From Eremomyces bilateralis CBS 781.70 (taxonomy: Eukaryota; Ascomycota; Dothideomycetes; Eremomycetales; Eremomycetaceae): 64,000 nucleotides of DNA. The notes under the pieces were generated by a model, which saw only the letters and a program-made list of their open reading frames with translations, did not search any database and had not been told where the DNA came from. The stretch spans positions 157,788 through 221,787 of the forward strand of contig NW_022985080.1 of NCBI RefSeq assembly GCF_010015585.1, read 5' to 3'. Numbering within the stretch: the first letter of the stretch is position 1; every line of letters starts with the position of its first letter. The position numbers and the translations under genes are program-made. This document shows, one piece after another, positions 1,593 to 30,465 of this stretch.

Positions 1593-4500
1593 ATGTCCGA
1601 CATCAAACCGCAAAATGAGCCGGTCGTCCCCAGCGACATCGAAAAGATCCGTTCCTCGATCGATACCAACTTCAAGAAATTTGCCGAGCTCATGAGCAAC
1701 ATCCGCAAGCCCGTCCCTGACCAGACCGGAAATGGATCGCACCTCAAGTTGCAGGACGATACGCCAGCGATCGTCAAGAAGGTGACGGATAATTTGTCGG
1801 ATCTGAGCCACCTTGGTATCCAGGATATCACCACACTCTTGGAGGCATTTTCGCACACCAAGAATGGAGAATTGGTGGACGACAAAAGCTACTTTATGGA
1901 GCGATTGATCCAGGTACCACCACCTCGTCTTCAGTGGTTGGAGTTGAACATTGATTCTGACTATGGAGGTAGTGCGCCGCAGACTTTCCCGATAACTCGA
2001 AGATGGGCGCCGACATCACGAATAATTTCCTGACACAGCTGTGGAATGATCTGGATCATCCACCGCAATCGTAAGAGCTTGTTACGAGCAGTCTCCAGCT
2101 GTTATCTGACCCCTTATAGATACTTGGGAAAGGACTGGCAGTATCGCTCTGCAGATGGGTCCAACAATGTACCCTCCCGTCTTCCGTACGCAGTACCGCA
2201 CTAACAAGAACAGAGCTTCATGCACCCGAACTTGGGTAAAGCCGGCACACCATACGCCCGCAGCGTTACGCCGCAAACCATGCAACCGGGCGTCCGACCT
2301 GATCCTGAGGTCATCTTCGATAGCCTCATGTCACGGAAAGTGCGCGAGGATCACCCGAACAAGATCTCCAGTGTTTTGTTTTACCTCGCATCCATAATCA
2401 TTCACGACCTCTTCAGGACGGACCGTGAGGATTTTAGGGTCTCGAACACATCCTCGTACCTGGATTTGTCTCCCCTATACGGTAGCTTCTGGGAGGAACA
2501 GAAATCGATGCGTACTTTCAAAGACGGAAAGATCAAGCCGGATTGCTTTGCTGAGAAGAGATTGCTGGCGTTCCCACCCGGCGTTGGCGTCTTGTTGATC
2601 ATGTTCAACAGGTTCCACAACTACATAGTCGATCAGCTCGCTCTGATCAATGAGGGCGGCCAGTTCACCAAGCCAAAGGAGGGGGCGACTGGAAAGAGGG
2701 CAAAAACATGGGAGCAATACGATGAGGATCTCTTCCAAACAGGTCGACTGATCACTTGTGGTCTTTACGTCAACATCATCCTCGCCGACTACGTCCGCAC
2801 CATTCTGAATCTCAACCAGACCAACAGCAATTGGAAGCTCGATCCCCGTGCCGATATCAAAGACCTCGAGAAGGGCAAGGGCAATCAGGTTTCTGCTGAA
2901 TTCAATCTCGTCTACAGATGGCACTCGACAATTTCGGAGCGAGACGAGAAATGGACCGAAGATTTCTTCCAGGAGCTGTTTGAGGGTAAGAAGCCCGATG
3001 ACGTTAGCTGGCATGATTTCGTCGTCCGTCTTTCCGAGCTAGATAAGCAAATCTCCGAGGACCCTTCCGAGCGACCGTTTGCTCGCCTCGAGCGCCAGGA
3101 AGATGGCACCTTCGACGACGATGATCTCGTGAAGATCATCACCGAGGGCATCGAGGACTGCGCCAACTCGTATGGAGCCCAGCGTGTTCCCGCTGTCATG
3201 AAGGCCGTGGAGGTGCTGGGCATCCAACAAGCTCGGGTCTGGAACGTTGCATCCCTGAATGAGTTTAGGAAGTACTTCGGACTCACTCCACACGAGACGT
3301 TCGAAGACATCAACTCCGATCCACATGTTGCGGATCAGTTGAAGCGGCTCTATGACCACCCCGACTACGTCGAACTATATCCAGGACTCATCGCCGAGGA
3401 AGCGAAGATCCCTATGGTCCCTGGTGCAGGTCTCACCCCGTCGTTCACAATTTCACGGGCTGTTCTGTCTGATGCGGTTGCGCTTGTGCGCGGTGACCGA
3501 TTTTATACGGTCGATTACCACCCGAAGAAGCTGACCAACTGGGGTTTCCATGAAGTGCAGGGTGACAATACCATTGACAATGGCTGCGTGTTCTTCAAGC
3601 TATTCTTGAGGGCGTTCCCCAAGCACTTCAAGCAAAATTCGGTTTACGCACACTATCCGATGACCGTCCCGTCCAAGATGAAGGATGTTCTTACCGTCTT
3701 GGAAACCGCCCATCTGTATGACTTTGAGAGGCCGAAGAAGACCAACGACCCGTCTATGGTGTTTAGCTATGCAGCTGCCTCGAAGGTTTTGAACGATCAG
3801 CAAACATTCAAAGTGACTTGGGGGCCTGCCATAGAGTTCCTTATGGGGCCCGCCGCGAAGGACTTCATGCTGTCGGGTGATGGACCGAAAAATGCCGAGT
3901 CTCGCAAAATGATGCACAAGTCTCTGTACGTCCAAGAATGGGAGAAGCAGGTTAAGGAGTACTACCTGGACATCACGAAGAAGCTCATCAAGGAGAAGTC
4001 ATACAAGCTGGCCGGGGTAAATCAAGTGGACATCATCCGCGACGTCGGCAACCTTGCCCACGTCCACTTCGGCTCGGATCTGTGGTCACTCCCTTTGAAG
4101 ACCAAAGAGCGTCCTCTCGGGGTCTTCACCGAATCCGAGATGTATCTCATCATGGCCGGAGTTTTCATCTGCGTCTTCTTCGACCTCGATCCCGCGAACT
4201 CTTTCCCACTCCGACAAAAGGCGTACAAGGCCACCCATGCGCTGGGTCAACTGGTGGAGGCCAACGTCACGGAAGTCAAGCTCGGCGGTATCTTTAACCA
4301 GCTCTTCTCCGCCATATTCCCGAAACCGTCTCCCCTCACTGACTACGGGCTCCAGCTCACTAAACGCCTCCTGGAGTCGGGCATGGATGTGAAGAAGCTC
4401 GTCTGGGGTCATATTTTGGGCACTGCGGGTGGTATGATCCCAAACCAAGGCCAACTCTTCGGCCAGATCCTGGAGTTCTACCTCACGGTCCCAGAGGGAC

Positions 4501-5096
4501 AGAAACACCTTCCTGAAATCCGGAAGCTGGCCCTCCAGGATTCCGACGAGGCATTCGACAAGCTCATGCACTACGTTCTAGAAGGTGCTCGACTGTACGG
4601 AGAGACGGGCGTTTTCCGCGCCGTCGCAACGCCAACTACCGTCCAGGACGGCAACCACGAGGTCCACCTGAAGCCCGGTGACGTGGTGATGGTGAACCTC
4701 CGCGCCGCCTCACACGACGCCGCGGCGTTCCCGAACCCCAAGAAGGTGGACCTGACCCGGCCGATCGACAAGTACATCTTCCTCGGCCAAGGCCCGCACG
4801 AATGCCTGGGTCTGGCGATGACGCGGATTTCGCTCACGTCCATGCTGAAGGTCGTCGGCGCGTTGCCGAACCTCCGCCCCGCGAAGGGCCCGCAAGGGAA
4901 GGTGCAGAAGGTGAAGAAAATCGTGAAGGGCCACGAGGACTTGCCTGAGGAGTGGAGTTATCATGCGTATTTGACCGAGAATTGGGATTCGTTCTTCCCA
5001 TTCCCTTGCTGTAAGTGCATGCCTTTCCAAGTGCATAGAACACAATGGTTTACTAACCCTTTTATAGCTCTCAAAGCAAATTGGGATGACGAGTGA
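1593..5096 (+). CDS. Psi-factor-producing oxygenase (linoleate dioxygenase / diol synthase), PpoA-like
   Basis: Fusion of an N-terminal haem peroxidase/dioxygenase and a C-terminal P450 hydroperoxide isomerase, about 1,097 aa, close to the usual Ppo length of about 1,080. Proposed exons: 1593-1913, 1973-2070, 2120-2168, 2214-5010, 5068-5096; all frames close. The dioxygenase half carries a likely distal His220 in IIIHDLFRTD and the catalytic Tyr390 / proximal His393 in the YRWH motif. The P450 half carries the Asn900-x-x-Gln903 isomerase motif and the haem cysteine, Cys1020, in GQGPHECLG. Family knowledge: PpoC-type 10R-dioxygenases lack that cysteine, so a PpoA-type 5,8- or 7,8-linoleate diol synthase is more likely; product specificity cannot be read from sequence. 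Such oxylipins balance sexual and asexual sporulation. The 45-nt third intron is the least certain junction. Confidence 0.93.
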
Positions 5097-13059: not shown

Positions 13060-14325
13060 ATGGAGCGTCAGATTACGCCAGATCGGCCGATTAGGCGCGA
13101 GGAATATACTACAATCCAAAAATCGAGGTTTTTCGAAGCCTATGATAGCCGTACCGCAGATCAACCATTGTCAGACATCCTCCGCAAGCTCGACCTCCCT
13201 CGGCGTACAGCAAATTACTGGCTTTCTCAACGCCGTCGTATTGGAAAAGAGGCTTACCGACGAACGCGCCCTAACAGCGACCGATTAGGGCGACGCCGCG
13301 CTATTACATCTCCTCAGTTAGATGCTATTGTATCTTCACAGAACCCTATAAGAGAGCTTCCATATGAAGCGAATATCACGCATTTCAATCTCGATATTAC
13401 AACCGGTCGCGCCCTCCATAACAATCTAAAAGATCGACGGGATGCAGGCCGTTTCGTTGAACAGCAGGGGAAACCCGTTTCTCCTCGGAATCGCAGGCTA
13501 CGGGAGGACTATGGCCGCTTCGGAAGAGAACAACCTCTTATCGGCTATTGAGACTCAATTGAATTTACAGACGAGATGCACTACGATCCTTCGGAGCAGC
13601 CGAAACAGTGAATTATACGCCAAAAAGGTACACGTTATAATTCGGAGAATCTTCAAAAGCGGCCGCAGAAAACGGGCGTTGCACTTCATATTGCTGCGTC
13701 TTGCAATTGGTACTCAAAGAGCAGTCTTATCTTCTATCACGACAAGTCTGAGGATCTTCCAAAACCACGAAGGCCTAGAAAGCCTAGGCAAAAACAGACT
13801 GAGACAGACGAACAGTTCCCTTCTAGATTGCAAGAGTGGAAGGCAAGAATACCTCACGAGATTCAGGTCAAACGGAAGGGGAATTCTATGACCCAGGAGC
13901 ATTATGCTAAGCATATTCTCCCAGCCTATATCGCGCGTATTGAGGCTGCTCGTTTATACCACCGCGGATCGTTCGGTGCTGACGTCTGTGGACCATTTAT
14001 GATGTTACAAGAGGATAACGATCCATCGCACGGTACACAGTCATTTAACGTCGCGTCGGCATTAAAACATGCCCATTGGATTACATGCATAAAGCATCCA
14101 CCACAATCCCCAGACCTAAACCCGATTGAAGCACTTTGGGGGATCCTAAAGCAGAGGGGACGCAAACGGGTATGGCGATCGATTACGGAGCTGAAGCAAG
14201 TCCTAATTGATGAATGGGACAAGATCTCAATGGAAGAGGTACGCGTTAGGATCGCAGAGATGCCGTCTAGATGTCAATTACTTGTAGATAGCAAGGGGGA
14301 CTTCGTAAAAACTGCGCTGTGGTAA
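13060..14325 (+). pseudogene. Tc1/mariner DDE transposase, broken by two in-frame stops
   Basis: One continuous frame of 421 codons with TGA codons at 13549-13551 and 13606-13608; there is no frameshift. The N-terminal part has a helix-turn-helix (ILRKLDLPRRTANYWLSQRR). The DDE catalytic domain follows: first Asp in EFTDEMHYDP just after the first stop, second Asp in MMLQEDNDPSHG, and Glu in SPDLNPIEALWG. I count 37 residues between the second Asp and the Glu, longer than the 34 typical of Tc1. Both stops could come from single transitions (TGG to TGA at 13549 and CGA to TGA at 13606), judged from the residues expected in related transposases. The second change is in a CpG context, so methyl-cytosine decay fits it better than canonical CpA-type RIP. 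Confidence 0.88.
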
Positions 14326-24607: not shown

Positions 24608-25196
24608 TTACAGCGCGAACACGGCCAAGGCACCACCAAGAGCCAAAACACCCGCGCCAATCTTGCTCGCAGCGCCGGAGGGAGCAGGGCCAGCCTCACT
24701 CAAGGTAGCGGCCGGGGGGTTAGCGGATGGGGTGGAGGTTCCATTGCGCGCAGCTGAGCCCGCTTGGGTGGTGGTGGCTGGAGCAGGGGTCGCGGCAGAG
24801 CTTTCTGAGCTAGGAGCGGCCGAACTGGACTCGCCGGGGTTCGGGACTTGAGTGGCGACAGGACCGATAACTTCTTCGCAGAAAGCAGCGGCTCCGGGAA
24901 GCACCTCGTCTAGGGGCAAGTCAGAGGACGTGATACAGGGAGATGGTGGAGGCGGAGAAGCACTTACTGATGGCGACGTCACCACCGCAGGCAGTGAGCA
25001 CGCAGGTTACGCCGGCATCGTAGATGGCACGGTAGTTATCCACCTCACATTGGCACTCAGCTTCGTCGACTGTGCAAGGAGAGCCGGCAGCAACAGCCTC
25101 CTCGAGACATTTGTCCGCACATTCTGGAGTGAAGTCGGTGATGCGCACGGCAGCGGCGATGCCGGCGGCGAACAGAAGAGCAACCTGGTACTTCAT
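24608..25196 (-). CDS. CFEM-domain GPI-anchored cell-surface protein
   Basis: Two exons, 25196-24968 and 24909-24608, with a 58-nt intron, giving 176 aa. A signal peptide (MKYQVALLFAAGIAAAV) precedes one CFEM domain with all eight cysteines: CADKC, SPC, ECQC, TCVLTAC and a final AFC just after the splice junction. A Ser/Thr/Ala/Pro-rich stalk follows, then a small-residue stretch and a hydrophobic tail (IGAGVLALGGALAVFAL), as expected for GPI attachment. Known role of the family: CFEM proteins of the wall bind haem in iron acquisition, and others act as effectors or wall stabilisers. The axial Asp of haem-binding members needs an alignment to place. The gene is divergent from a siderophore transporter, and iron-GATA-like motifs lie between them, which favours an iron role. 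Confidence 0.92.
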
Positions 25197-25740
25197 CTTG
25201 ATGCTTTTGTGTCGAATGGCGAGGGTATTAGGAGTTTGGGATAGACTTGGATTGATTTAATGGACTGAGATGGGGAAGAACAGACAGGCTGAGATTTGAG
25301 AGGAATAACGGAGAAAGCTTTACGAGACTGGCTGAAAGCGGCAAACAGCTCGGACAAGGGGATATATGTGTCACCGGGTAGCGGAAGACCTCGAGGGGTC
25401 TAGGTCTCAAAGTATGTTTTTCCTCATTTTTACATCTGCAATAGCGCCGCTGTGGTAGCCGGTAGAGCTATCCTGATTCCTGAACAGGAGCTGGCTCCTT
25501 CATGGTGAGTTCGTACCGACCAGTGTATTGGTCAGGACTCAGTAGCCCGCAGGCCGAAGCCCACGCCTCACGAAATGCCTATGCCGAATATCGGCGCGGA
25601 AAAGCCCAATCACCACGACTCGACGAGGCACCACGAAACAATTCACGGCAAAATCCTTGCTAGGTGAAGAAATTGCGTGAGGAATTCAAAGGAATCCCAG
25701 GGGAAGAGGTGATGGTGTTGAACGCACGGATCAGCTGATG

Positions 25741-25791
25741 ATCAGATAAGCCATCACATGCAGAGATAAGATGATCAGATTAGCAGATAAG
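25741..25791. promoter_or_regulatory. Cluster of iron-responsive GATA (SreA-type) motifs
   Basis: One exact match to the SreA consensus ATCWGATAA lies at 25741-25749. Within the next 42 bp are GATAAG at 25765-25770, the one-mismatch ATCAGATTA at 25774-25782 and the near match AGCAGATAA at 25782-25790. The cluster sits 545 bp from the CFEM start codon and 564 bp from the siderophore transporter start codon, so it could serve both. Binding by an SreA/Sre1 repressor is inferred. Confidence 0.65.
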
Positions 25792-26354
25792 ATCAAATTT
25801 TCCAGCGCCAAGGGAAGCGCCGTCAGGGGTTGGCGCTCAGAAAGACGCAGCTGGGCTTGGGAGACTGGACTTGGAACCTGGACTTGTCGTCTAACATCCC
25901 AGATTCCTAATATTCCCAAAGCAAGATGCCCCGCTTCCGGTGGGTTCGTGGCCTGTTTGTCAGGGAAGTCGAATTGAAATCGCTTGGATGCCGCGTGGGA
26001 CGGAAAGCTCACTGGTTCATGCGCCGAATCCCGGATAGTTTGACTGGAGTAGTGTGTCCAGCACCGCGTCCATAGCTGACGAAGAGAAGCTCTATGGCTG
26101 TGACGGCAGCAGGTAGGTTAAAGCTTTTAGGGTCGAGGCCTCGAGGGCCATGTTGCGGGTTCGGTCAATGTTCGACAATAATATACCCCCTGCTGGTCGC
26201 CTGCCGTAGTCGCACATCATCGATCCATGGACAGTTGGTTTGACTGTGTCAGGCATTAGTTTTGCTTTCACTTTTCCACTTCAGTCACAGTCTTTGCCTT
26301 TTGTTTCTTCTTGCCGTCGGATCATCTCCATCGTTTTATACCTTTTAAAGGACA

Positions 26355-28221
26355 ATGGCTTCAGTGCCGCCAGGGCCTCAGGCCCCCAATCCGATAGACT
26401 TCTCAGCGAAACCGGAGGAGATCGCCGAAGTGAGGGCGCACGATGGTCCCATCGAGGACGAGGACTTGAAGAAGGAACATAAACAAGCCGGTGTGCAAGC
26501 CGTGGAAGCAACAACGACAATATGGGGGAAATGGGACCTCGTTGCGGCATACGCATTGTACGGTCTCCCTGCGACTTAGTCTCGACCAGAAAGTCCCATT
26601 AACACCGACTGAACAGCATCTGGTTGATATACTTCATCACGTCGGCGTTTGAGGTCGTTGTTCGGTCGTTGACCCCCTTCGTGACGAGCGCGTTCTCCAG
26701 GCACTCGCTAACTGCCACGACAACGATCATGTCGAGTATAATCGGAGGGTTGTCGAAACTACCCATCGCTAAGATTCTCGATACCTGGGGTCGACCTCAA
26801 GGTCTGGCTTTGACGCTCCTTATCTGGGTCCTTGGCTTGATTATGATGGCTTGTTGCCATAATGTGGAGACCTATTGCGCCGCGCAGGTCTTCTCTGCAG
26901 TCGGGTGAGTGCCCTTTTCCCGCCCTGCGAGCCGTGGTTATGGACGAGCCGATGTTGATACGAACTTAGTGCTCAAGGTGTGAGCTACTGTTTGACCATT
27001 TTCATCGCCGATACATCATCCTTGAAAAATCGACCGCTGATGCTGGCCTTCGCGACATCGCCATACATCGTAACAACTTGGATCGGTGGTCCAATCGCCG
27101 ACAGTGTTGTTCAAGGTCCTGGGTGGCGATGGGGGTTCGGCATATTCGCGATTGTGACTCCCGTTGTGGTTTCGCCGCTGATCGCGCTGTTCCTCTGGAA
27201 CCATCAGAAAGCCAAGAAAGCAGGGCTGATCCGGAGTAGCAGAGGGAAACTGACTCTCTCGAGTGTCAAACAGTACGTTATTGAAGTGGACCTGATTGGC
27301 CTGATAATTCTTGCGGGCGGCATGGCGCTGTTCCTCCTCCCGTTCAGCCTCTACTCGTACCAGGCGAAGTCCTGGAGTTCGCCCATGATCATCTCTATGA
27401 TCATCGTCGGTGGCCTTCTCATCATCGCATTCGTCTTGTACGAGCAGTTCCTTGCCCCCGTCAAATTCATTCCTGTGAAGTTGCTAGCCGATCGAACCGT
27501 CTTCTTCGGAGGGTTGATGTTCACCTTCGTCTTCTTCAACTCGGCGGTGTGGAACAGCTATTTCACCTCTATGCTCCTCGTCGTCTGGAACACCGGCGTC
27601 GCCAAAGCCACATACATCACGAACATTTACCGCGTCGGATCGTGTTTCTCGGCATTGATCATTGGTGTTTTCATCAGATGGTCCGGCCGGTTCAAATGGG
27701 TTGCGCTCTATTTCGCGATTCCCCTGATGATGTTGGGAGTGGGACTCATGATCCATTTCCGACAACCGGATGTCGACATCGGCTATGTGATCATGACACA
27801 GATTTTCGTCGCCTTCGCTGGCGGCCCAATTGTAATCGCAGGCGAAATGGCCATGATGGCACCGTCGGACCACCAACACATCGCCGTCATCATCGCCATC
27901 CTCGATTTGTTCAGCAGCGTTGGATATGCGCTTGGGTCCACCGTGTCAGGGGCGATCTGGACGGGAACGTTCCGACCGGCTCTCGAGAAGCATCTTCCGG
28001 AGGGAGCACCGATCGAACGCATTTATAACAACATGTACCAACAGTTAGCGTACCGGGTTGGAACTCCAAACAGGATTGGTATCGGCTATGCTTACGCCGA
28101 TTCTCAGAGGTACATGCTCATCACGAGTGTGTGCCTCTTAGCTGGCGCCGTGGTGTGCGCCGCCCTTTGGAGAGATATTAGGATCAAGGACGTCAAACAA
28201 GTTAGAGGCAACGTCGTTTAA
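26355..28221 (+). CDS. Siderophore iron transporter, major facilitator superfamily (SIT/ARN type)
   Basis: Three exons, 26355-26557, 26617-26904 and 26970-28221, give 580 aa, the usual length of 14-TM siderophore-proton symporters. A 60-residue acidic N-terminal cytoplasmic tail leads into WLIYFITSAFEVVVRSLTPF, then SFSRHSLTATT-like AFSRHSLTATTTIMSSI, the DTWGRPQGL loop (an MFS motif A variant), and GPGWRWGFGIF, all typical of SIT members such as MirB and Sit1. The last extracellular loop contains the tyrosine-bearing YNNMYQQLAYRVGTP, which matches the loop implicated in substrate transport in this family. Which siderophore or haem compound it carries is unknown. It is divergent from the CFEM-GPI gene, and the motifs at 25741-25791 predict repression when iron is ample. 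Confidence 0.9.
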
Positions 28222-28465: not shown

Positions 28466-30465
28466 TCATTCTGAAACCCCACCTTTCGGCTGAAGAAGTA
28501 GAACGAAGAATTGATCGGATTCTGCTCCGACTTGATTGCGGTCCCCCGCCGAGTAATGAAGCGGCTTGAACGGCGACAGCAAAATGAATTCATATACCGA
28601 GCCGATTATGAAAAAATCGTCTTCTTCAAATTCGTCCATGCTGACCGTACCACAATCCGCACCTTGACCATCTAGGATGGTTGCCATTGCACTGAACACG
28701 TCAAACTCTCCTAGCCGCAGATGTATGGCATATGTCCAGAACTGCAACATGGTATATGGACGACGATACTCGCTGATTCCAAGGCGATTCCAAGCGGTTG
28801 GGGTAGATTGCCGTGAATCCCTTTCTGAGGTAGGCACCTGTTGTTCCAAGTAGGCTAAAGAGTCATCACACGGCCCAACATCCGGCTTTCCGACATTCCA
28901 TAGAGGGTCAGCCCGATCGGTCGAATATCTCTGATACCATTTAATCCACGATCGTCCTGTATCATTGCTCCCGTCAAATAGCTTAGATCGGAGACGATAA
29001 TAGGATATGCGACCTATCCAGCCAGCCCAAGAATAACTTGGAAATCCAGCACGGCGACGAAGCGGAGACATAGCCGAAGTGAAAGTAATGAAAAGGTCTA
29101 TATCCTGGCTTGGCAACCCTTCGACTAAATCCCCCAGAAGATCTGGTAGGGTTCGTCTCGAGAGGCCAGCAATGGCATTTAAAGCATCGGCTTGATTTGT
29201 CAATGCGCGAGATGTGTAATCACATATCAGGCGTTGAAATTGTCGCCTTGGGGCCTCCCATATTGTCATTAGCTGTTTCAAAAAAGGATGTCGTGGGAAC
29301 GCATGGAGCAAGTCTTCAGACAGGATGGAATTTTGACAGCGAAAAACCCATTGGTTGTTGATGAAAACAAGCGCTCGACGGGAAACATGTCTTCTTGAAA
29401 CCTAGTATAAGTAAGCAATTGACGGATGTAGGCCTAAACAGTTCATAGGCAACATACGTCCAAGCCCGCTTGGAATAAGTAGAAGATGACAAGAGCACAT
29501 CTAACATAGGGTGGACAACAAATGCGATATTGTCGATAACCTCAAGAAGCTGCCTGTGGAAGCGATTATAGCCGTCCACGCCGGGGAGGCCCGAGTCTGC
29601 GTCGGGCTCATTAGTAGCGATGATTGTCATTAGTGCATTCTCGAAGATGCTGTCCATAACATTGACACCTTGTTGTATGTCCCTCTCATCATTTTGTAAG
29701 AGGCAGATTGCATCAACCCAAAGAAAACGTTCGTCAAGTCCTTTGGTGAGCACGATGGCGTCCTGAATGGTCTTCGGAATCAAATCCCAGATCGTTTCCA
29801 GGACGCCCGTGGTGAACATGGCTGATTTATTGTTGGTAGTGAGTCAAACATTGGGAATGCCACCCCAGACATAGCTAAGAGCGAAGTATCCGCAAGGACT
29901 TGCCGCTTCGACAATGCATTGGTTGACGACATCGATCAGCCGGAGCGGCCAGACAGGATGGAGACTGGATTGTTGTCTCTCACAAATGTCTGAGTGCTTT
30001 AGTTCACATGCCTCCAAGCTCTTTCTTATTTCTTGGATATCGATTTGTTCCCTTACAAGGCGACCCAGTTTCAATCCTTCGGTCGGGATTGGGTCTGCAT
30101 CACGGCTTGATCCCGTTGTGAGAGCAGTAGATGAGGAAGACGCAGGCATAAAGCAGATTTGGAAGATCGAATCCACGGAATCGGTCAAGGTGGCAGCATA
30201 ACATCGGGTCCCAGCGCATTACAAAACTGTCATTTGCGTTCTGCTTGCGAATGCCGTGAAAGGCACAGTCGACGAGCCGGCACATTGGGCAGTGTTTGTG
30301 CCGTCTGTTCTGTTGATTCTGAATATCCCATGTTCGACCAGCGTCATATTCCCCTCGCAGTACGTGGCCTGCATGCAACACAATTTCCTCGTAGACAGAA
30401 CAGACTGTCTCTGTATACTCCATGCATAGACGTACCTCCAAGGCTTGACGATGGCATTGACTCAT
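28466..30465 (-). pseudogene. HET-domain (heterokaryon incompatibility) gene, apparently broken
   Basis: Minus-strand remnants cover a whole HET-type protein. In order they are a Cys-rich N-terminal part with CPMCRLVDCAFHG and MRWDPMLCCHL; the HET core with YFALSYVWGG, LPKTI-like LIPKTIQDAIVLTKGL, RFLWVDAICLLQND and the downstream SKRAWT block; and a C-terminal part with RRRAGFPSYSWAGWIG. HET proteins trigger cell death when incompatible individuals fuse. The core shows at least one apparent break, so this copy looks like a recent pseudogene unless an unusual intron rescues it. Its similarity to the family remains clear, which points to modest age. Confidence 0.75.

What the first reader, a model, noticed from the sequence alone, without database searches (positions are those of the whole stretch)
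24608..28221. Divergent CFEM-GPI protein and siderophore transporter around an iron-GATA motif cluster
A wall-anchored CFEM protein and a SIT-type transporter are head to head across 1.16 kb. Almost midway (545 and 564 bp from the two ATGs) lies a 51-bp cluster with one exact ATCWGATAA and three near matches, the site known for SreA-type iron repressors. This suggests a two-gene iron-uptake module in which the surface protein could hand over haem or siderophore iron to the transporter.
Basis: partly seen in the sequence, partly recalled or inferred. Interest (0 to 1): 0.72.

Follow-up and report, generated by a model that had tools for sequence, protein, structure and literature searches.

The report
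Iron-switch promoter between two genes
In an unnamed fungus, a likely siderophore (iron-carrier) importer gene and a small surface-protein gene lie back to back across a promoter that carries the iron-switch DNA motif found at other siderophore genes of the same fungus, so the importer is probably iron-controlled and its neighbour may be switched with it; whether the two proteins work together is untested.

Summary
In detail: a 176-aa CFEM protein (25196-24608, minus) and a 580-aa MFS transporter (26355-28221, plus) stand head to head across 1158 bp, with an ATCWGATAA site and near matches midway. Inside the same genome the motif marks siderophore genes: four loci with iron genes hold 12 exact sites in 39.6 kb (0.43 expected); 25 comparison loci hold 6 in 83.7 kb (0.91 expected). 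The paired form seen here occurs at 10 places (16 matches; reversed control 2); of 7 places whose genes I read, 4 flank siderophore-type genes, this one included. The transporter keeps the Tyr-x6-Arg-x6-Tyr of siderophore transporters. SreA-type iron repression of the transporter is therefore well supported; co-regulation of the CFEM gene is inferred; hand-over of iron is untested. Against haem relay: the Asp that binds haem iron is Glu here, while 8 of 8 other CFEM domains read keep Asp. Head-to-head CFEM/haem-uptake pairs are known (PGA7-FRP1); a CFEM-SIT pair was not found in my searches. Conservation could not be tested.

The parts
24608..25196 (-). CFEM-domain gene, 2 exons, intron 24910-24967, 176 aa: hydrophobic N-terminal segment, eight-Cys CFEM domain (Pfam match residues 23-87), Ser/Thr/Pro/Ala-rich stalk, hydrophobic C-terminal tail that looks like a GPI signal
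   Evidence: gene model; Pfam CFEM 4.2e-7; hydrophobic ends and Cys positions; weak match to Csa2 (4y7s, E 9.6e-4)
26355..28221 (+). SIT-type MFS transporter gene, 3 exons, introns 26558-26616 and 26905-26969, 580 aa, signature Y525-x6-R532-x6-Y539
   Evidence: gene model; Pfam; signature; paralogues
25197..26354 (.). shared 1158-bp divergent intergenic region
25739..25790 (.). iron-type GATA cluster: one exact ATCWGATAA, a second ATCWGAT half, three AGATAA in one direction
25741..25749 (+). exact ATCAGATAA
25774..25782 (+). ATCAGATTA, one mismatch; with 25741-25749 it makes the pair ATCWGATAA-N0-30-ATCWGAT
25782..25790 (+). AGCAGATAA, one mismatch

Best explanation
A two-gene divergent unit under iron control. 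In iron-rich cells the SreA-type GATA repressor binds the 25739-25790 cluster and shuts off the SIT gene and, because the region is shared, probably the CFEM gene; in iron-poor cells both are released. The SIT imports a ferric hydroxamate siderophore through the plasma membrane. The CFEM protein is exported, anchored to membrane or wall, and holds a ferric ligand near the cell surface. Shown here by sequence: gene identities, motif cluster, presence of the motif at other siderophore genes of this genome, an encoded SreA-type factor, the SIT loop residues. Inferred: binding, repression, CFEM co-regulation, export and anchoring, substrate. Speculative: physical hand-over of a ligand from CFEM to SIT.
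For: Four regions with iron genes: SIT paralogue C4, SIT paralogue with an esterase C3, sidA-type gene with NRPS C8, SreA-type gene C18; 4 of 4 hold exact sites (4, 5, 2, 1), 12 in 39.6 kb against 0.43 expected; for C8 and C18 alone, chosen before any motif position there was known, 3 in 19.8 kb against 0.22. 25 comparison loci: 6 in 83.7 kb against 0.91. Tandem exact pairs: 7 matches against 0 in the reversed control; exact site plus half site: 16 against 2, at 10 places. Of the 7 places whose genes I read, 4 flank a SIT (C4), an NRPS with a GNAT Acetyltransf_8 gene (C10:625k), a full ABC transporter 12 kb from it (C10:637k, counted for that nearness) and this SIT. Sites lie 641-678 bp from the C4 SIT start and 233-1343 bp from the putative C3 SIT start. 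PMC2610380 (passages) found the motif over-represented upstream of SreA-regulated genes of the same kinds. SIT loop residues present. Of 10 other CFEM loci checked, 0 have an exact site within 1.5 kb of the domain; 3 more were not checked.
Against: No expression or binding data. The window has no excess of the motif. Triple AGATAA is not enriched genome-wide (3 against 4 in the control). One exact site here, against three and four near the starts of the two SIT paralogues. 3 of the 7 pair places read flank genes not known to me as siderophore genes (oxidoreductase, MFS_1, OPT), and three looser groups of sites that I also fetched (C4:419k, C5:54k, C5:296k) flank mannosyltransferase, ESF1-type, PPR and GHMP-kinase-type genes. 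The comparison loci are themselves above the genome average: two distant MFS loci and one other GATA-factor locus hold one exact site each, and L039 holds three. The C4 SIT does without a CFEM neighbour, so the cluster may serve the SIT alone. The haem-iron Asp is Glu.
Confidence: 0.6

Rival explanations
1. The cluster is the SIT's own iron promoter and the CFEM neighbour is a bystander, for instance a structural wall protein; head-to-head placement is ordinary in a compact genome.
For: The C4 SIT paralogue has a stronger cluster at a similar distance and no CFEM match near it (one search says its counts are lower bounds). The three A. fumigatus GPI-CFEM proteins are reported to act on wall stability without helping infection (one sentence and a reference title seen in PMC9684206). 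Glu at the haem-iron place.
Against: The cluster is midway, and 0 of 10 other CFEM loci checked have an exact site within 1.5 kb of the domain. Head-to-head CFEM/haem-uptake pairs exist elsewhere (PMC9635878, passages).
Confidence: 0.31
2. A haem-uptake pair: the CFEM protein captures haem and the SIT-family transporter, like Str3 of fission yeast, takes it in.
For: A SIT-family member reported to transport haem is known (PMC8470733, passage). The genome has one haem oxygenase-family match. FRP1-PGA7 and FRP2-CSA1 are head-to-head CFEM/haem-uptake pairs.
Against: Tyr-Arg-Tyr of siderophore-transporting SITs intact; whether Str3 keeps it was not checked. Glu in place of the haem-iron Asp, while 8 of 8 other CFEM domains read (of 13) keep Asp. 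No exact motif site in the 3.5-kb haem oxygenase locus.
Confidence: 0.1
3. The GATA cluster serves another GATA factor, for instance the nitrogen regulator AreA, and has no link to iron.
For: Seven GATA-finger matches at six places in the genome; AGATAA is also the core of AreA-type sites (recalled). Motif pairs also stand at genes not known as iron genes.
Against: The ATC-extended form tracks siderophore genes in this genome.
Confidence: 0.08

Closest known systems
SreA regulon of Aspergillus fumigatus (ATCWGATAA; PMC2610380, passages)
   Same: Motif, two-finger SreA-type factor, kinds of genes carrying the motif (SITs, sidA, NRPS, ABC, a SIT with an esterase)
   Different: The word CFEM does not occur in that paper's main text; A. 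fumigatus has ftrA, while this genome gave no FTR1 match, which recalls A. nidulans, said there to lack reductive iron assimilation
PGA7-FRP1 and CSA1-FRP2 head-to-head pairs of Candida (PMC9635878, passages)
   Same: CFEM gene head to head with a membrane haem-uptake gene, shared promoter region
   Different: Partner here is a SIT-type MFS protein, not a ferric-reductase-like protein; haem-iron Asp is Glu; synteny not testable here
SIT transporters Str1, Str2, MirB, Sit1, Arn1 (PMC11840675, PMC8470733, passages)
   Same: MFS family, Tyr-x6-Arg-x6-Tyr in the last loop
   Different: Substrate unknown
SIT with esterase (EstB and a putative SIT in A. fumigatus cluster SRGC4; here the C3 locus)
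   Same: A SIT near a second gene of iron-carrier handling, motif sites between them at C3
   Different: Partner in the window is a surface-type protein, not a cytoplasmic esterase

Membership tests
SIT (siderophore-iron transporter, MFS) | MFS profile match | tested here: met
   MFS_1 6.7e-17, residues 69-486
SIT (siderophore-iron transporter, MFS) | Tyr-x6-Arg-x6-Tyr in the last loop (SITD) | tested here: met
   Y525, R532, Y539; present in paralogues C4 and C3; not found in six frames of L019-L023, loci of five more distant MFS proteins (a motif split by an intron or outside the locus would be missed); residues named in PMC11840675
SIT (siderophore-iron transporter, MFS) | 12-14 membrane helices | tested here: inconclusive
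   12 by a plain hydropathy scan; no topology program run
SIT (siderophore-iron transporter, MFS) | transports ferric siderophore | not testable with these tools
   needs uptake assay
CFEM domain protein | Pfam CFEM over cut-off, eight Cys | tested here: met
   30.3 bits against cut-off 22; Cys 26, 30, 41, 48, 50, 65, 70, 87
CFEM haemophore (Rbt5/Csa2/Pga7 kind) | Asp three residues before Cys4 that binds ferric haem iron | tested here: not met
   Glu at that column against Csa2 and against 8 of 8 other CFEM domains read, of 13 in the genome; an Asp lies one residue earlier
CFEM haemophore (Rbt5/Csa2/Pga7 kind) | export signal and GPI anchor | tested here: inconclusive
   hydrophobic segments at both ends, residues 5-23 and 158-176; no dedicated predictor run
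SreA-regulated promoter | ATCWGATAA upstream | tested here: met
   25741-25749
SreA-regulated promoter | motif tracks iron genes in the same genome | tested here: met
   4 of 4 regions with iron genes, 12 sites in 39.6 kb (0.43 expected); 6 in 25 comparison loci, 83.7 kb (0.91 expected)
SreA-regulated promoter | SreA-type factor encoded | tested here: met
   C18: two GATA fingers in one frame with C-x5-C-x8-C-x2-C between
SreA-regulated promoter | binding and iron repression | not testable with these tools
   needs footprint, ChIP or RNA data
CFEM/membrane-partner head-to-head pair (PGA7-FRP1 kind) | shared promoter region, divergent | tested here: met
CFEM/membrane-partner head-to-head pair (PGA7-FRP1 kind) | partner of the ferric-reductase family | tested here: not met
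   partner is MFS/SIT
CFEM/membrane-partner head-to-head pair (PGA7-FRP1 kind) | pairing kept across species | not testable with these tools
   no relatives of this genome held

The most novel reading that the evidence does not exclude
The CFEM protein is not a haemophore but a wall-anchored relay or concentrator for a ferric siderophore, its altered ligand site fitting that role, and it feeds the SIT encoded beside it; CFEM-SIT would be a filamentous-fungal counterpart of the Pga7-Frp1 haem relay.
Probability: 0.13. Interest if true: 0.78.

Novelty: new variant of a known kind. Interest (0 to 1): 0.42.

Why it matters
How ferric siderophores reach membrane importers through the fungal wall is usually put down to free diffusion (recalled). 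A CFEM surface protein switched together with a SIT would be a concrete, testable candidate for a surface step in siderophore uptake. Even without that, the window adds a probable member (the SIT) and a candidate member (the CFEM gene) to an iron regulon in a fungus whose genome gave no FTR1 iron-permease match.

Tried and rejected
Calling the cluster significant from the window alone: rejected, the window has no excess of the motif. Counting GATA triplets: rejected as evidence of its own, 3 genome matches against 4 in the control. HapX: the Pfam model rang nowhere, controls included, and says nothing; one CBC:HapX-like word lies at 25970-25989, by a pattern recalled from memory, so not used. 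RNA families: no match in the window at gathering scores. Relatives of the SIT in viral and prokaryote contigs: none, as expected for a fungal gene. PDB search with the SIT: no match at E 0.1. Looser motif groups at C4:419k, C5:54k and C5:296k were fetched too; no iron gene was found in the frames scanned there. Papers: no paper in the library was found to join CFEM with a siderophore transporter in a head-to-head or divergent pair, by searches (CFEM, siderophore transporter, bidirectional promoter: 1 paper, whose shared promoter is ftr1-fet1; 0 papers; at least 2 of 3 terms: 31 papers, 25 listed, seen as titles and opening lines of abstracts apart from those named here; 1 paper, PGA7-FRP1). 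One search (CFEM, SreA, iron) listed 16; I looked up passages in five of them and saw no CFEM gene named as an SreA target there; the other 11 were seen as listing only. Most subscription papers are not held. One search translated the third exon in a wrong frame and was not used.

Rows dropped before counts: the comparison set (24 loci, 3 sites) left out L039, which the search for sidA-type genes had brought in and which holds three sites of the C1:111k group; one search counts it in (25 loci, 6 sites) and that is the figure used. Loci of the window itself, of the SITs, of the SreA-type and sidA-type genes, and those fetched for a motif (L009-L011, L044-L048, L051-L060) are not in the comparison set; nor are L049 and L050, the flanks of the sidA/NRPS locus (0 sites each). 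Adding L009 and L011 gives 27 loci, still 6 sites.
Full report
What is there. The window is G000:C14:157788-221787 of a 26.6-Mb genome in 62 contigs. GT-AG introns and CFEM, HET and SreA-type genes mark it as a fungus (no call names the organism). On the minus strand a two-exon gene (25196-24608) encodes a 176-aa CFEM protein; on the plus strand a three-exon gene (26355-28221) encodes a 580-aa MFS transporter; 1158 bp lie between the ATGs. The gene models rest on introns and open frames, not on transcripts.

Motif. ATCWGATAA occurs exactly once in the window, at 25741-25749, midway between the ATGs. A second ATCWGAT core (25774) and another one-mismatch site (25782) follow within 50 bp, and three AGATAA stand in one direction. 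The window as a whole has no excess of the motif (1 against 1.04 expected; with up to one mismatch 16 against 25.35), so the argument must come from place and clustering.

Genome tests of the motif. Exact sites: 291 (164+127) against 163 (82+81) for the reversed pattern (only the first 100 places are listed). Tandem exact pairs within 30 bp: 7 matches against 0. Exact site plus half site, the form found here: 16 matches (14+2) at 10 places against 2; this locus is one of the ten. I read genes at 7 of the 10: a SIT paralogue (C4:201k); an NRPS with an Acetyltransf_8 gene and an AMP-binding gene (C10:625k); a full ABC transporter 12 kb on (C10:637k, counted as siderophore-type only for that nearness, so these two are not independent); this SIT (C14); and, not known to me as siderophore genes, an OPT transporter (C8:578k), an MFS_1 transporter (C1:2295k) and a pyridine-nucleotide oxidoreductase (C1:111k). 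Three looser groups from the list (C4:419k, C5:54k, C5:296k) flank mannosyltransferase, ESF1-type, PPR and GHMP-kinase-type genes, no iron gene among the frames scanned. The triple AGATAA alone is not enriched: 3 against 4. So the motif, and its paired form, mark siderophore genes but not only them.

Iron loci against comparison loci. Four regions with iron genes were fetched: the C4 SIT, the C3 SIT, the sidA-type gene with its divergent NRPS (C8) and the SreA-type gene (C18). All 4 contain exact sites: 4, 5, 2 and 1, together 12 in 39.6 kb against 0.43 from the genome density. For C4 and C3 the genes came from the protein search, but the motif list was in view when the regions were fetched; for C8 and C18, which that list does not reach, the figure is 3 in 19.8 kb against 0.22. 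Where the C18 site lies relative to the SreA-type start codon was not settled. In 25 comparison loci (8 CFEM, 5 distant MFS, 5 other GATA-factor, 6 oxygenase-type, 1 haem oxygenase) there are 6 in 83.7 kb against 0.91; three of the six are the C1:111k group in L039, which an earlier count left out. So comparison loci too lie above the genome average, and the contrast is about fourfold, not twentyfold. The C3 SIT stands next to a putative esterase with sites in between, which recalls EstB with a putative SIT in A. fumigatus SRGC4 (PMC2610380, passage); orthology was not tested.

The regulator. The C18 gene encodes two GATA fingers with C-x5-C-x8-C-x2-C between them (read from the translation). 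PMC2610380 (passages) gives two fingers and an interjacent Cys-rich region as the SreA build and reports ATCWGATAA as 5.4-fold over-represented upstream of 49 putative SreA-regulated genes.

The transporter. The last loop holds Y525-x6-R532-x6-Y539; both SIT paralogues (C4, 45-56%, and C3, 30-31% identical over the matched stretches) hold the same spacing, and a six-frame search of five loci of more distant MFS proteins (L019-L023) found none, with the caveat that a split or out-of-range motif would be missed. PMC11840675 (passages) names the corresponding residues of Str1, Str2, MirB, Sit1 and Arn1, several shown by mutation to matter for siderophore use. PMC8470733 (passages) calls phylogeny of limited value for predicting the substrate of a SIT, so the substrate stays open.

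The CFEM protein. Eight Cys are in place, and Csa2 is the one meaningful PDB relative (E 9.6e-4). At the column of the Csa2 haem-iron Asp this protein has Glu, with an Asp one residue before. Eight other CFEM domains of this genome that I read (of 13) all keep Asp there. PMC9635878 (passages) describes the Asp as the ferric-haem ligand, reports that Asp-to-His mutants are inactive in vivo, and that Asn replaces it in some reductase domains; nothing I saw tests Glu. This lowers, but does not exclude, haem binding.

Co-regulation of CFEM. The cluster is equidistant, and of the other 13 CFEM loci 10 were checked and none has an exact site within 1.5 kb of the domain (8 held loci; two, on C1 and C4, by the coordinates listed); three on C6 were not checked, and for long proteins 1.5 kb may not reach the promoter. 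So this CFEM gene is singled out only by sharing a SIT's promoter region. The C4 SIT has a stronger cluster with no CFEM match near it, so a SIT does not need one.

Setting. The genome gave no match to the FTR1 iron-permease family, a model that rang in 4 of 14 control genomes, none of them fungal as far as named, and one haem oxygenase-family match. If FTR1 is truly absent, siderophores would be the main high-affinity route, as PMC2610380 says of A. nidulans lacking reductive assimilation. Of 28 other window frames scanned with Pfam none gave an iron-uptake family and 9 gave no family; not every open frame was scanned. The unit looks like two genes, not part of a larger cluster.

Precedent and novelty. 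FRP1-PGA7 and FRP2-CSA1 are head-to-head CFEM/haem-uptake pairs sharing a promoter region, the synteny kept in 75% and 70% of the yeast genomes compared (PMC9635878, passage). The pair here has the same layout with another kind of transporter. My paper searches found no CFEM-SIT pair; that covers an open-licence library only, and most listed papers were seen as titles and opening lines of abstracts.

Verdict. Iron control of the SIT: about 0.85. Iron control of the CFEM gene through the same cluster: about 0.6. Working together on one ligand: about 0.25. The first two were lowered slightly from the draft (0.88, 0.62) after L039 was counted in.

Noticed in passing
genome G000 C8:578053-578081 (L058:4954-4982): Tandem ATCWGATAA pair about 0.5 kb before the open frame of an OPT-family transporter gene, a possible further iron-regulated transporter.
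   Followed up: partly
genome G000 C1:111363-111422 (L044:4864-4923): Three exact ATCWGATAA in 60 bp between a pyridine-nucleotide oxidoreductase frame and a HET-domain frame; iron link unknown.
   Followed up: partly
genome G000 C10:620400-642200 (L059, L060): NRPS, Acetyltransf_8, AMP-binding and full ABC transporter genes with two motif-pair places: looks like an extracellular-siderophore gene cluster.
   Followed up: partly
genome G000, whole: No FTR1 iron-permease match, which may mean loss of reductive iron assimilation.
   Followed up: partly
window 2205-5093 (+): Haem peroxidase plus P450 domains in one frame, as in Ppo-type fatty-acid oxygenases (family name recalled).
   Followed up: no
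window 13612-14322 (+): DDE_3 transposase match, perhaps a transposon remnant.
   Followed up: no
window 29319-29843 (-): HET (heterokaryon incompatibility) domain about 1 kb beyond the end of the SIT gene, opposite strand.
   Followed up: no
genome G000: All ten motif-pair places have a plus-strand match on their contigs; the two minus matches are at the palindromic C4 place. Probably coincidence; single sites are 164 against 127.
   Followed up: no
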